From positions 186,001-250,000 of the forward strand of contig NZ_CP014619.1 of the NCBI RefSeq assembly GCF_002074055.1: 64,000 bases of DNA. The letters run 5' to 3'. This DNA comes from Frondihabitans sp. 762G35 (GTDB taxonomy: Bacteria; Actinomycetota; Actinomycetes; Actinomycetales; Microbacteriaceae). The notes beneath the pieces were generated by a model. That model saw only the letters and a list, made by a program, of their open reading frames with translations. It had not been told where the DNA came from and made no database searches. A program made the translations under genes and the position numbers. Of this stretch, positions 22,262 to 53,066 are shown piece after piece (positions within the stretch are counted from its first letter, which is position 1; each line of letters starts with the position of its first letter).

Positions 22262-22692
22262 GAGACTCCACGACTCGCCACTCACTTTCGGGAAAACGCC
22301 CCAATCGTGGAGTCTCGCCCCCGCTTGTGCGGCGGCGCTCCGCACCGGCTCCGGCGAGACTCCACGACTCGCCGTACGCGGGGAAAGGTGAGCAGCGTGT
22401 TGTGGAGTCTCGCCCGGCCGGCGGCGCCCGGCGGCCGCCGGCTCCCGTGAGACTCCACGACTCGCCACTCACTTTCGGGAAAACGCCCCAATCGTGGAGT
22501 CTCGCCCCCGCTTGTGCGGCGGCGCTCCGCACCGGCTCCGGCGAGACTCCACGACTCGCCGTGCGCGGGGAAAGGTGAGCAGCGTGTTGTGGAGTCTGGC
22601 CCGGCTTGTGCGGCAGCGTTCCGTTCCGGCTCCGGCGAGACTCCACGACTCGCCGTGCGCGGGGAAAGGTGAGCAGCGTGTTGTGGAGTCTC
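22262..22692. repeat. Array 1: five 55-56 bp palindromic repeats
   Basis: Units at 22262-22316, 22356-22411, 22449-22503, 22543-22598 and 22637-22692. Each begins GAGACTCCAC and ends GTGGAGTCTC (one end-base change in the fourth). Start-to-start distances are 94, 93, 94 and 94 bp. Two interior types alternate: CGACTCGCCACTCACTTTCG-type (units 1 and 3) and an inverted AAAGGTGAGCAGCGTGTTG-type (2, 4, 5). Units 1-2 and 3-4, with spacers, form a 187-bp near-identical tandem duplication. The array starts 41 bp beyond the 3' end of lhr and ends 75 bp before nei. No coding frame runs through it. Confidence 0.95.
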
Positions 22693-22733
22693 GCGGGGCG
22701 CGGGCGGGCGAGCGCCCGCACGACGCGCAGGAG

Positions 22734-25700
22734 CTAAGCCCGCAGCCGCACCCCACCGGGCGTCGGCGCGAAGCCCGCCGCGAGGAGCGCATCGCCCAGA
22801 GGCGTGCCGAGCACGAACTCGCCGTCGACGCGCTCGATCGCGAGCCGACCGATCCGCGACCGGACGACTCCTGCGAGCGATCCGGCGACGGCGGCCAGGT
22901 CGCGCTCGCTCGGCTCGTCGAACGTGAGCGTCGTCTTGCCGCCGCGCTCGACGTAGACCACGAGTCGCCCGTCGACGAGCACGACGAGCGCCCCCGCCTT
23001 GCGGCCCGGCCGGTGGCCGCGCGGGGCGTCCTCGGGCAGGCTCGGCCAGGGCAGCGCGGCACCGTACGGGTTCGCAGGATCGGTCGCCGCAAGGGTCACG
23101 ACCGGGATCTCCCGACCCCGCCCGGCCCCCTGCAGCACCTCGTCGCCCTCGCGATCGTCGTCGCGCACGAAGGAGCGGAGTCGGTCGACGGTCGCACCCG
23201 TGGCGAACTGCGCCGCGCCGAGACCCTCGACGAAGTAGCCGCGGCGGGCGCGGCCGGTCTCCTCGAAGGACGACAGGACCTTGTAGACCGTCGAGAATCC
23301 GCCCCGGACGCCCTCGTTGACGACCGCGCCGCGCGTGACGACGCCGTGCCGCTCGAGGAGGAGCTCCGCCTGGGCGGCGGCGCGGACGGTCGCATCGGGT
23401 TCGGCGAGAGGCAGGAGCGACCAGCGCCCGCCCACGGTCGGTGGCCCGGACTGCCGCGGAAGAGACGCGCGCGCGCGACCGCGGTACGACGAGCGGGCCC
23501 TCGTGGCGGTCGGCCGGGGTCGCGGCGGGCGACCGCTCACCTGTGTCCGCAGGGGGGCGAAGGTGTCGTTGGTGATCTGGCCCTGCCAGACGAGATCCCA
23601 GATGGCGGTGACGAGTCCCGAGTCGTCGGTCGAGCCGACGGCGTCCGAGAGCTGGCGGAAGAAGTAGGCGCCCCCGCCGGCGAGGGCGGCGAGCACCTCG
23701 CGCTGGAGCTCGGTCGTCTCGTCGCCCGACGGCTCCGCGAGGGTCACCTGGGCGCCGTCGGCGAGGTGGAGGCTGACCCAGCCGTCGTTGCCCGGCAGTG
23801 ATCCTGCGCCCGACCAGATGATCTCGCCGGTGGCGGTCAGCTCGTCGAGCATCCCCGTCGAGTAGTCGGTGATGCGGGCGGGCAGGATCAGCGACTCCCA
23901 CGCCGAGGCGGGAAGCGCCACGCCGCTCAGCTGGTCGACGACCTGGACGACCCCGTCGATCCCGCGCAGCCCCGAGCCCTTCGTCCCGGTGGCGACGTGC
24001 TGCCACGCGGGCAGGAACCGCCCGAGAATGTCGTGGGACACGGGCTCGACCTCGTGTCGCAGCGCCGCGAGAGAGCGGCTCCGGAGGCGCCGCAGAACCT
24101 CGACGTCGCACCACTCGCTGCCCTGGCGGTCGGGCCGGAACTCGCCCTCCACGACTCGCCGCTCGACCGCGAGGCGGCGCAGCGTCTCGAGCACGACGGC
24201 CGTCCCGAGCCCGAGCCGCTGCGCCATCTCGATCGGGGAGAACGGGGCGTGGGTGCGCGCGTATCGCCCGACGAGGTCGCCGAGCGGGTCGTCGACCGGT
24301 TCGACGAAGGCGGAGGGCACACCGATCGGGAGGTTGACGCCGAGGGCGTCGCGGAGGCGGCTGGCGTCCTCGATCCCGGCCCAGCGCTCGGTGCCGGCGT
24401 GCGTGAAGCGCAGGACGCGGTTGGCGCGGGCCAACCCGGTGAGCGCCTCGTCGAGCGACGCGCGCGCGGATTCGGGCGCCGCGGCTCCTGCGGTCGCGTC
24501 GACGGCGAGCCACGAGCGCTCGACGATCTCGTCGGTCGTGAGCGGACCGAGGAGCCGCAGCAGGTCGACGACGCCCTCGATGTCGCGCGCGCGGCGGTCG
24601 GGTAGGAGTCGCTGCAGCTCGAGCGCGTGCTGCTCGATGACTCCCGGGTCGAGGAGCTCGCGCAGCTCGGCCCGGCCGAGGAGCTCGGCGAGGAGCGTCG
24701 GGTCGAGCGACAGGGCGGCGGCGCGGCGTTCGGCGAGGGGGGAATCGCCCTCGTACATGAACGCGGCGACGTAGCCGAACAGGAGCGAGCGCGCGAACGG
24801 CGACGGGACCTCGGTCTCGGTCTCGACGATGCGGATGCTGCGGCGGGCGAGCTCGTCGGTGAGGCTCATCAGGGCGGGGAGGTCGTAGACGTCTTGGAGG
24901 ACCTCGCGGACCGCCTCGAGCACGATCGGGAAGCTGGGGTACTTCCGTGCCACGTCGAGGAGCTGTGAGGCCCGCTGCCGCTGCTGCCAGAGCGGGGAGC
25001 GCTTGCCCGGGTTGTAGCGGGGCAGGAGCAGCGCTCTCGCCGCGCACTCCCGGAACCGCGCCGAGAAGAGGGCCGACCCGCCGACCTCCTCGGTGACGAT
25101 CGCGTCGAGGTCGTCGCGCTCGAAGGTGAAGAGCGCGGCGCCGGGAGGCTCGGCGTCGGTGTCGGGGATCCGCACGACGATGCCGTCGTCGGCCGCCATG
25201 GCGGAGCCGTCGACTCCGAGCTGGTCGCGGATGCGCGCGCTCACCGCGAGGGCCCAGGGGGCGTGCACCTGCATTCCGTAGGGGGAGTGCAGGATGAGGC
25301 GCCAGTCGCCCAGTTCGTCGCGGAAGCGCTCCACCACGAGAGTGGTGTCGGTGGGGACGTGCCCCGCCACCTCCCGCTGCTCGGTGACGAAGGCGAGGAG
25401 GTTACGGGCCGCGCGGTCGTCGAGCCCGCCGGCGAGGACGCGGGTGGTCGCCTCCTCGACGCTCGAGTTGGCGAGCTCGCGGGTGTACGCGCCGATCGCG
25501 CGCCCGAGCTCGGCGGGACGGCCGATGCCGTCGCCCTTCCAGAACGGGACCCGGCCCGGCTGGCCGTAGGCGGGGGAGACGAGGACGCGGTCGTGCGTGA
25601 TGTCCTCGATCCGCCAGCTCGTCGCCCCGAGCGCGAAGACGTCGCCGACGCGGGACTCGTAGACCATCTCCTCGTCGAGTTCGCCGACCCGCGCGGCCTT

Positions 25701-52101: not shown

Positions 52102-52788
52102 TCAGCCGTCGGTCGGTGCCGGTGCCGGCGTCGCGTCGGCGTTCGCCCGGGCGGCGGCTCGGGCCCGGTGCGCCCTGACCTTCGCCCGGTTGCCGCACTT
52201 CTGCATGGAGCACCAGCGTCGGCTCCCCGCGCGGGAGTCGTCGTGGAAGATCAGGCGGCAGTCGTCGGCGGCGCACCGGCGCAGGCGGGCGTCGCCCTCG
52301 GCGGTGAAACCGACCTCGGCGAAGAGCCGCACCGCGTCGCGCGCCAGAGACGACAGCGCCTGGCCGAGCCGCAGCCGCCCGGCTCCGGCCTGGCGGCGCC
52401 CGCCCGGCAGGGACGGCGGCACGTCGGGCAGGGCGGCGAAGAGATTCAGCGTGTCGATGTCGCCGGCACCCGGTCCGGATGCGTCGGGCAGGTGGCCGTC
52501 GGCAGCGGACGTGGCGAGGCGGGCTATCGCGTCGCGGAGGCCCCGGGCATCCTGCAGTTCTCGCTCGGTCGTGCCGGCCGCGAGGCCGTCGAAGCGCTCG
52601 CCCAGCCAGACCTCGAGGTCGGCCGGGACGAGCAGGCCGTCCCAGCCCGGTCCGGGGAGACCGGCCGCCGGGCCGAACCCGGCGTGGTCGTCGAAGCCGC
52701 CGAGATAGGCGAAGTCGAGGCTCACCGCGCCGGCGTCGAGGTGCCAGCGCGTGCCGGAGGGGGAGTCGAACCACTGGCCTAAGAGCAT
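52102..52788 (-). CDS. CGNR zinc-finger protein (putative stress-induced regulator)
   Basis: 228 residues. An N-terminal ABATE-like domain (FDSPSGTRWHLDAGAVSLDFAYLGG... LVPADLEVWLGERF) is followed by a C-terminal CGNR zinc finger: LRRCAADDCRLIFHDDSRAGSRRWCSMQKCGNRAKVRAHRAR (about 168-212), with four Cys and the CGNR signature that gives the family its name. Probably a DNA-binding transcription factor. Convergent with the DUF427 gene, 5 bp apart. Confidence 0.9.
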   Translation of the reverse strand: MLLGQWFDSPSGTRWHLDAGAVSLDFAYLGGFDDHAGFGPAAGLPGPGWDGLLVPADLEVWLGERFDGLAAGTTERELQDARGLRDAIARLATSAADGHLPDASGPGAGDIDTLNLFAALPDVPPSLPGGRRQAGAGRLRLGQALSSLARDAVRLFAEVGFTAEGDARLRRCAADDCRLIFHDDSRAGSRRWCSMQKCGNRAKVRAHRARAAARANADATPAPAPTDG

Positions 52789-52821
52789 GTAACCACCGTA
52801 GCCGGTGTGTGTCGCTCCCGT

Positions 52822-53066
52822 GAGACTCCAAGACACGCTGCTCACCTTCGGTGAGCCGCGGCACATCGTGGAGTCTCGCTGGGCGGGGGGCGGGCGGCGT
52901 CGGGCGTGAGACTCCACGATGTGGGGCGTTTCACGAAGGTGAGCGGCGTGTTGTGGAGTCTCGCTGGGCCGGGCCGGGCCGGGCCTGGGCGGGGCGTGCG
53001 GCGTCGGGCCTGAGACTCCACGATGTGCGGCGTTTCACGAAGGTGAGCGGCGTGTTGTGGAGTCTC
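52822..53066. repeat. Array 4: three 55-56 bp palindromic repeats
   Basis: Units at 52822-52877, 52908-52962 and 53012-53066, start distances 86 and 104 bp. The first has a one-base change in its left end (GAGACTCCAA) and a GCTGCTCACCTTCG interior; the second and third share CGATGTG-GGCGTTTCACGAAGGTGAGCGGCGTG. The array ends 65 bp beyond the 3' end of the sprT-like gene. It fills the 343-bp gap to the CGNR gene. Confidence 0.95.

What the first reader, a model, noticed from the sequence alone, without database searches (positions are those of the whole stretch)
22262..53066. A family of 55-56 bp palindromic elements in four intergenic arrays (16 units)
Seen: sixteen units, all with near-invariant GAGACTCCAC and GTGGAGTCTC ends and a more variable 35-bp interior (best common core: CRACNCGCCGCTCAYNTTCG next to one end). 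Units occur in both orientations. In several units pairing can extend to about 19 bp per arm, with G-T wobbles. Every array lies 40-65 bp beyond the 3' end of a gene (lhr, the MFS gene, the SRPBCC-like gene, sprT). Conserved ends with drifting interiors suggest that the ends, or an RNA stem, are under selection. Possible roles: protein-binding array, mRNA 3' processing or termination, or a non-autonomous mobile palindrome. I recognise no described family.
Basis: partly seen in the sequence, partly recalled or inferred. Interest (0 to 1): 0.82.

Follow-up and report, generated by a model that had tools for sequence, protein, structure and literature searches.

The report
Dispersed palindromes with a nuclease gene
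The repeated 55-letter palindromes in this bacterial genome match the repeats that flank a gene for a DNA-cutting type of protein, and related bacteria have their own gene-and-palindrome pairs, which points to a kind of jumping DNA that we did not find described.

Summary
In detail: 16 palindromes of 55-56 bp in four arrays; 168 were found in the genome (a lower bound; genus Frondihabitans by inference), mostly just behind genes. New results: (1) Neighbouring units are spaced in steps of one DNA helical turn (about 83, 93.5, 104 bp) although spacers differ between arrays; another genus with unrelated palindromes shows the same steps. (2) The genome encodes a roughly 300-aa protein (AbiEi-like N-terminus, Vsr/DUF559-like nuclease C-terminus) lying between copies of the palindrome. 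Of 97 related genes examined across the order, 85 have a palindrome beside them and 67 share a gene-specific palindrome sequence on both sides. (3) One species carries palindrome-gene-palindrome where this genome has an empty intergenic site. (4) No sign of selected RNA pairing was found. Best reading: the palindrome is the double-stranded site of a nuclease homodimer, and dispersed copies are non-autonomous parts of a nuclease-palindrome mobile element, organised like REP/RAYT but with an unrelated enzyme. Association is strong; binding, cleavage and transposition are inferred. Ten searches of an open-licence library listed no description.

The parts
22262..22692 (.).
22262..22316 (+). unit 1.1, 55 bp
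22356..22411 (-). unit 1.2, 56 bp
22449..22503 (+). unit 1.3, 55 bp
22543..22598 (-). unit 1.4, 56 bp
22637..22692 (-). unit 1.5, 56 bp
34468..34896 (.). Array 2, five units between convergent genes, 40 bp from each stop
34468..34523 (+). unit 2.1, 56 bp
34573..34627 (-). unit 2.2, 55 bp
34655..34710 (+). unit 2.3, 56 bp
34759..34813 (-). unit 2.4, 55 bp
34841..34896 (+). unit 2.5, 56 bp
50386..50629 (.). Array 3, three units, 50 bp beyond a 3' gene end
50386..50441 (+). unit 3.1, 56 bp
50482..50536 (-). unit 3.2, 55 bp
50575..50629 (-). unit 3.3, 55 bp
52822..53066 (.). Array 4, three units, 65 bp beyond a 3' gene end
52822..52877 (+). unit 4.1, 56 bp
52908..52962 (-). unit 4.2, 55 bp
53012..53066 (-). 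unit 4.3, 55 bp

Best explanation
Each 55-56 bp palindrome is the double-stranded DNA site of a homodimer of a roughly 300-aa protein (AbiEi-like N-terminal region, Vsr/DUF559-like nuclease C-terminal domain) encoded at G000:C1:2893521-2894426, outside the window, between copies of the same palindrome. The half-site has two parts: a near-invariant outer 10 bp (GAGACTCCAC), about 5 variable bp, and an inner box near positions 16-20. The autonomous element is palindrome-gene-palindrome; the dispersed solitary and arrayed palindromes are gene-less copies that persist mainly behind gene ends, where they do least harm. New copies arise, or are kept, at whole-helical-turn distances from existing ones, because the bound complex acts on the same face of the DNA. 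Shown: palindromes, copy number, phasing, gene-palindrome association, a site with and without the whole module, end sequences that tend to follow protein similarity. Inferred: homodimer binding, cleavage, the way copies are made.
For: Genome-wide family: 77 exact, 168 found. Phasing: 55 of 58 spacings (49 arrays, each distinct value once per array) lie at 80.5-85.5, 91-96 or 103-104.5 bp; 0 of 2000 uniform and 0 of 2000 jittered nulls reach the periodicity. Repeat in another genus: G011 has 17 exact GACTCGCC palindromes of 54-55 bp (control 0) with start-to-start spacings 94, 124, 85, 94, 95, 95, 104, 94. Partner: the own gene has a unit ending 100 bp before its start and a three-unit array 20 bp after its stop. 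Ninety-seven distinct loci: palindrome on either side 85, both 52, matching ends 48; of 33 one-sided loci 19 share a 10-mer with the other flank, swapped control 1 of 33. Controls: cross-locus end match 122 of 4778; distant windows of the same loci 11 of 116 with a palindrome, 0 of 58 matched. Empty site: G002 L135 has unit-gene-unit in 1224 bp between conserved flanks where the own genome (L300) has 99 bp and no palindrome. G006 L130 has one palindrome where own L104 has unit, gene and array. Protein pairs 50-70% identical in the N-terminal part share an end 8-mer in 7 of 15 cases, 2-4% below that. PF18741 in 46 of 50 and DUF559 in 38 of 50 proteins at E 0.01; profile hit 3hrl E 8e-5.
Against: No binding, cleavage or transposition data; no structure was predicted. 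Exact insertion boundaries are not resolved and no direct repeat of 4 nt or more was seen in the outer 20 nt at the one empty site. Twelve of 97 loci have no palindrome by the criterion; outside the order 12 of 24 have one and 3 of 24 have matched ends. The four seed proteins of the search were themselves chosen because palindromes flank them, and loci were taken from the top of hit lists, so rates may be lower for remote members. The own upstream unit has imperfect ends and fails the strict test; both G002 units at L135 have one degenerate end, and the second overlaps the ORF's stop by 4 bp. The own genome has 5 matches to the family, and only this one is known to lie beside this palindrome. 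Own and L135 proteins score below Pfam's curated cut-offs. 3r3p is a weak match (E 0.045). Off-phase spacings: 110, 122, 152 and one G002 pair at 61. The only protein pair at 70-90% N-terminal identity does not share an end (0 of 1). A homing endonuclease normally sits inside a destroyed copy of its site; here sites flank the gene.
Confidence: 0.68

Rival explanations
1. The protein is a resident regulator or defence nuclease. The palindromes are its operators, decoys or self-recognition marks, kept at gene ends for a function such as supercoil absorption or insulation of convergent genes; they are not a mobile element.
For: AbiEi-like N-terminal region (E 6e-4 and 1e-3); helical phasing fits a selected binding array; 40 of 70 arrays lie between convergent genes; of 51 hits in relatives, 4 lie at the same gene end as an own array (L133, L134, L130 and L118:8325).
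Against: Gene-specific palindromes on both sides of the gene in 67 of 97 loci; a whole module present in G002 and absent from the own genome at the same site; 47 of 51 relatives' hits are not at a shared gene end by blastn.
Confidence: 0.17
2. The palindromes are spread by an unidentified transposase and the nuclease gene is only a passenger or settles next to palindromes.
For: No transposition activity was found described for this protein family; the enzyme making copies is not shown. Other transposase families were not searched for.
Against: Each gene tends to have its own palindrome type, and type tends to follow protein similarity; Y1 transposase absent from all 7 genus genomes.
Confidence: 0.1
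3. RNA hairpins: transcription terminators or 3' mRNA stabilisers.
For: Placement behind stop codons, mostly between convergent genes; a first pair count on a mixed alignment was slightly above shuffles (81.7% against 79.4%); outer 10 bp pair slightly better within than across own units (0.927 against 0.922; 12 of 1000 shuffles reach it).
Against: Interior arms are not more complementary within units than across units in the own genome (162 distinct units) or in G011 (15 of 17 units); the excess in G004 (22 of 24 units) is not seen within its one tested subfamily of 9; 51 G-U against 74 A-C on the sense strand in tandem arrays; orientation mixed. The test has limited power because own units have two unlike halves. 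Helical spacing has no RNA reason.
Confidence: 0.04
4. REP elements mobilised by a RAYT (Y1 HUH transposase).
For: Same genomic habits: extragenic, 3' of genes, arrays, partner gene between repeats (PMC3733652, abstract and section list).
Against: PF01797 in 0 of 7 genus genomes, with 5 of 14 control genomes positive; no GTAG or CGTC tag at the ends; 55 bp instead of 20-40 bp.
Confidence: 0.01

Closest known systems
REP/BIME/REPIN with RAYT (TnpA_REP)
   Same: Extragenic palindromes in many copies behind gene ends, in arrays, with a partner gene lying between copies (PMC3733652, abstract and section list seen; rest recalled).
   Different: Partner is a Vsr/DUF559-like nuclease, not a Y1 HUH enzyme; no GTAG/CGTC tag; 55-56 bp; symmetry behaves as a dsDNA half-site; spacing in helical turns.
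EDxHD (Vsr-like) homing endonucleases such as I-Bth0305I
   Same: Related nuclease region by profile (3r3p, weak); conserved E, D, E, H, D in that region. PMC3943268 (passages read) says I-Bth0305I dimerises on a target of nearly 60 bp.
   Different: No intron or intein seen; the gene is flanked by sites instead of interrupting one; N-terminal region is AbiEi-like; many dispersed sites.
PF18741 REase_MTES_1575 / DUF559 proteins
   Same: The partner's C-terminal domain (46 and 38 of 50 members at E 0.01; own member below curated cut-offs). PMC3710099 (passages read) names MTES_1575 as a Vsr REase domain.
   Different: The two passages read describe fusions with HEPN, helicase and wHTH domains and mention no palindromes.
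MITEs and miniature insertion sequences
   Same: Short, non-autonomous, terminal inverted repeats.
   Different: Symmetry is not confined to the ends, length is nearly fixed, arrays are phased; no target duplication seen at the one empty site, whose flanks are diverged; a DDE transposase was not searched for.

Membership tests
REP/RAYT | Y1 (HUH) transposase partner in the genome | tested here: not met
   PF01797: 0 of 1 own, 0 of 7 genus; control rings in 5 of 14
REP/RAYT | GTAG or CGTC tag at one end; 20-40 bp | tested here: not met
   Ends are GAGACTCCAC/GTGGAGTCTC, length 55-56 bp
REP/RAYT | Extragenic, mainly 3' of genes | tested here: met
   66 of 70 arrays have a 3' gene end as a neighbour (median 33.5 bp); none inside a called gene
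REP/RAYT | Partner gene flanked by the repeats | tested here: met
   With an unrelated enzyme:
EDxHD homing endonuclease | Vsr-like nuclease core with E-D-x-H-D residues | tested here: inconclusive
   E200, H250, D260 invariant and D233, E244 at least 90% conserved in 50 proteins; 3r3p E 0.045; assignment to motif positions is recalled
EDxHD homing endonuclease | Gene inside an intron/intein or interrupting its own site | tested here: not met
   Free-standing gene between palindromes; introns were not searched for as such
EDxHD homing endonuclease | Dimer on a site of nearly 60 bp, cleaving it | not testable with these tools
   Palindromes are 55-56 bp here; matched palindromes in the 97 loci have median 57 bp, range 42-75
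Intrinsic terminator / RNA hairpin | Selected base pairing and strand bias | tested here: not met
   with limited power; slightly positive on a mixed alignment
Described RNA family | Rfam match | tested here: not met
   0 matches in the window at gathering score
MITE | Target-site duplication, related transposase | tested here: inconclusive
   No direct repeat of 4 nt or more in the outer 20 nt of the G002 module; flanks diverged. Only Y1 transposase was searched for

The most novel reading that the evidence does not exclude
A new class of bacterial mobile element: a Vsr-fold endonuclease homodimer binds 55-bp palindromes and, from a bound copy, directs a new palindrome (or the whole palindrome-gene-palindrome unit) into DNA at a distance set in whole helical turns, building phased arrays behind genes across the order, with many palindrome-nuclease pairs of separate specificity.
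Probability: 0.45. Interest if true: 0.93.

Novelty: categorically new. Interest (0 to 1): 0.87.

Why it matters
It ties a large family of proteins without known function (found in 87 of 120 Microbacteriaceae genomes, 111 of 149 order-level and 77 of 246 phylum-level genomes searched, own genome included) to a DNA target that can often be read off the flanks of each gene. That makes the function directly testable, offers many natural nuclease-site pairs of different specificity, and suggests that interspersed palindromes need not depend on HUH transposases. Helical phasing of dispersed repeats would be a new clue to how such arrays form.

Tried and rejected
Y1 transposase/RAYT partner: absent. 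Rfam: nothing in the window. Viral contigs: no palindromes; no protein relatives. Phage records: one protein match, not examined further. Plasmid records: four protein matches, three examined: one with matching palindromes on both sides, one with a palindrome upstream only, one with none. NCBIfam gave no family for the own protein, a DUF559 model for 3 of 50 and one stray hit. RNA hairpin selection: the first count on a mixed alignment was slightly positive; the per-genome test did not support it. Apparent 45/46-bp units were left out as probable internal matches. DUF559 loci of the genus: 10 of 18 showed no palindrome at that criterion; 3 of the 8 that did are the partner type, and the types of the other 5 are not settled, because I read loci with minus-strand matches in the wrong direction and used only plus-strand ones. 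One search failed in the script and was redone, where 10 of 84 sequences without the nuclease motif and pairs over 90% identical were dropped. One search counted 99 loci, two of them duplicates; one search gives 97. In one search, 5 of the 29 loci brought in's list (own or same order) were left out. One search left out 2 of 24 G004 units (other ends) and 2 of 17 G011 units (54 bp).

The aligned block lies on opposite sides of the units.

Limits: gene calls are a home-made codon-usage caller; stops are exact, starts are not. The stretches were chosen because they hold units, and an array lengthens the gap it sits in.
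Full report
Observation. The whole genome (3,409,251 bp, one contig) has 77 exact copies of GAGACTCCACN{30,40}GTGGAGTCTC and none of the reversed control. A covariance model from 35 units (30 own, 5 from G004) finds 150 in the genome, its scoring cap. In the window and 51 fetched stretches I count 168 units, a lower bound for the genome: 144 of 55 bp, 23 of 56, 1 of 59, in 70 arrays of 1 to 7 units. 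Among exact-end units only lengths 55 and 56 occur although 40-65 was allowed.

Origin. Contigs of G004 have the lengths of named Frondihabitans sp. Leaf304 contigs, so the genus is Frondihabitans by inference; that it belongs to Microbacteriaceae is recalled.

Place. None of the 70 arrays lies inside a called gene; 40 lie between convergent genes, 26 between tandem genes, 4 between divergent genes; 66 have a 3' gene end as a neighbour, at a median of 33.5 bp, 5% to 95% range -2 to 104. The stretches were chosen for their units, so this describes the units and gives no genome-wide rate.

Phasing. Centre-to-centre spacing is not smooth. Taking each distinct spacing once per array, 58 spacings from 49 arrays fall at 80.5-85.5 (30), 91-96 (19) and 103-104.5 (6), with 3 outside (110, 122, 152). 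Neither a uniform nor a jittered null reaches the observed periodicity (0 of 2000 each; best period near 10.0, with 10.5 nearly as good). Spacers are alike within many arrays and unlike between arrays, so the steps are not copies of one spacer. The other genus G011, whose palindromes begin GACTCGCC, has 17 exact units (control 0) with start-to-start spacings 94, 124, 85, 94, 95, 95, 104 and 94. Three pairs in G004 give 84, 94 and 104, and one pair in G002 gives 61. Whole-turn steps point to double-stranded DNA with something bound on one face, or to insertion measured from a bound copy.

Relatives. Five of 6 other genus genomes have model hits, many with other ends: GAGAGTGCGC in G002, GAGACTCCAC and GAGACTCCAG types in G004, GAGACTCCAG in G003, single cases in G001 and G006; 47 of the 51 hits printed are 55-56 bp, though the model favours that length. 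Among 59 other relatives the exact own pattern occurs in G004 only.

Symmetry. If the units were selected as hairpins, the interior arms of one unit should match each other better than arms of different units. In the own genome they match worse (positions 11-15: 0.375 against 0.508; 16-20: 0.643 against 0.692; 21-27: 0.208 against 0.407), with a slight excess in the outer 10 bp (0.927 against 0.922). In G011 there is no excess. In G004 there is an excess over 22 units, but not within the 9 units of one subfamily. On the sense strand of tandem arrays there are 51 G-U and 74 A-C mispairs, and orientation is mixed. So the palindrome reads best as two half-sites of a homodimer: outer 10 bp, about 5 variable bp, inner box near 16-20.

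Partner gene. In G002 two units lie at the two ends of an ORF (L135:2633-3577; the second unit overlaps the stop by 4 bp) that matches PF18741 (E 4e-5) and DUF559 (E 0.002), both below the curated cut-offs. In the own genome a related gene, 2893521-2894426, has a unit ending 100 bp before its start and an array of three units 20 bp after its stop. Searching with an alignment of four such proteins, all chosen because palindromes flank them, found the family in 87 of 120 Microbacteriaceae genomes and 111 of 149 order-level genomes; 50 proteins found it in 77 of 246 phylum-level genomes. Loci were taken from the upper part of the hit lists. Of 97 distinct loci, 85 have a 42-76 bp palindrome within about 500 bp on at least one side, 52 on both, and 48 have a pair sharing an end 8-mer; of the 33 one-sided loci, 19 carry a 10-mer of that palindrome's ends in the other flank, against 1 of 33 in a swapped control. 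Cross-locus pairing gives 122 of 4778, and distant windows of the same loci 11 palindromes in 116 windows and 0 of 58 matched pairs. Outside the order the signal is weaker: 12 of 24 loci with a palindrome on a side, 3 matched; control 2 of 46 windows. A named case is AL755_RS00945 on NZ_CP012477.1 of Arthrobacter sp. ERGS1:01, annotated as a hypothetical protein, with matching palindromes on both sides.

Specificity. Among 74 partner proteins, pairs whose N-terminal parts are 50-70% identical share an end 8-mer in 7 of 15 cases; at lower identity 2-4% do; the single pair at 70-90% does not. Mean identity is slightly higher for sharing pairs in both halves (0.375 against 0.349 and 0.444 against 0.422; permutation 0 and 5 of 2000). 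Palindrome type therefore tends to follow the protein.

Protein. PF18741 matches 46 of 50 members and DUF559 38 of 50 at E 0.01; one matches AbiEi_4. PADLOC AbiEi models match residues 14-137 of the own protein (E 6e-4 and 1e-3). The profile reaches 3hrl (E 8e-5), PvuRts1I (E 0.04) and 3r3p, a mobile intron protein (E 0.045); unrelated chains begin at E 0.18. E200, H250 and D260 are invariant and D233 and E244 at least 90% conserved. PMC3943268 (passages read) says that the EDxHD enzyme I-Bth0305I dimerises on a target of nearly 60 bp, close to the palindrome length here.

Sites with and without the module. In G002, conserved flanks (84% and 82% identical to own DNA) are separated by 1224 bp holding unit, gene and unit; in the own genome the same flanks are separated by 99 bp with no palindrome. 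The intergenic flanks are too diverged to fix the boundaries, and the outer 20 nt on the two sides share no direct repeat of 4 nt or more. At another site G006 L130 has one palindrome where own L104 has unit, gene and array. Own and G002 also share two palindrome sites (L075/L133, L087/L134), and a G004 unit lies behind the same gene end as own L087; with 70 own arrays mostly between convergent genes, independent arrival is not excluded.

Mechanism. Shown: the palindrome family, phasing, association, a present/absent module. Inferred: the homodimer binds the palindrome; it nicks or cuts at or near bound copies; repair or recombination spreads palindromes and sometimes the gene; purifying selection leaves them behind gene ends. 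Phasing may be made at insertion or kept by selection for cooperative binding; I cannot tell these apart.

Literature. Ten searches of the open-licence library listed no paper whose title or abstract start links these proteins to palindromes. I read passages of PMC3710099 and PMC3943268 and the abstract and section list of PMC3733652. Most subscription papers and preprints are not in that library, so an earlier description cannot be excluded.

Rating. By organisation it works like REP/RAYT; it is not a member, since the transposase, the tag and the length were tested and not met. I call it categorically new because I know of no counterpart to this enzyme class with phased double-stranded palindromes; a cautious reader could call it a new variant of the interspersed-palindrome kind.

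Noticed in passing
L020, L021, L023, L024, L025, L027, L028, L029, L033, L034 (MAG Actinomycetota SZAS CTRL-6 CK_MAG-45): 65-bp palindromes with the same GAGACTCCAC ends, in several cases with a similar motif nested about 19 bp further in; no partner gene was found by tblastn in loci L019-L035.
   Followed up: partly
L145:2501-2548 (G002): A 48-bp near-perfect hairpin with other ends (GTGCAGGAATCGCC) that shares the CTCACTTTC interior.
   Followed up: no
G004 units in L111-L127: At least two subfamilies of palindromes in one genome (GAGACTCCAC and GAGACTCCAGTAG); a partner-type gene at G004:C2:88920-89813 ends 28 bp before a GAGACTCCAG unit.
   Followed up: partly
Own genome, convergent arrays: Unit orientation is uneven: 78 in one direction, 30 in the other, 5 undecided; array duplication or replication direction may be the cause.
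   Followed up: no
L151 (G005), L153 (G003), L168 (G002): Other DUF559-type loci with 61-70 bp palindromes near them, ends CGAAGGGGATT, TCAAGGAGATTATT and GGAGTTCG.
   Followed up: no
L189 (G031) 878-2570: Five palindromes of TGCTCACTT-like ends around one partner gene, two pairs exactly 83 bp apart.
   Followed up: partly
L298 (Arthrobacter sp. StoSoilB13 plasmid) 5068-5333: Two ACGACGGCGGCC palindromes and a 70-bp one in a row, about 1.7 kb behind the partner-type gene.
   Followed up: no
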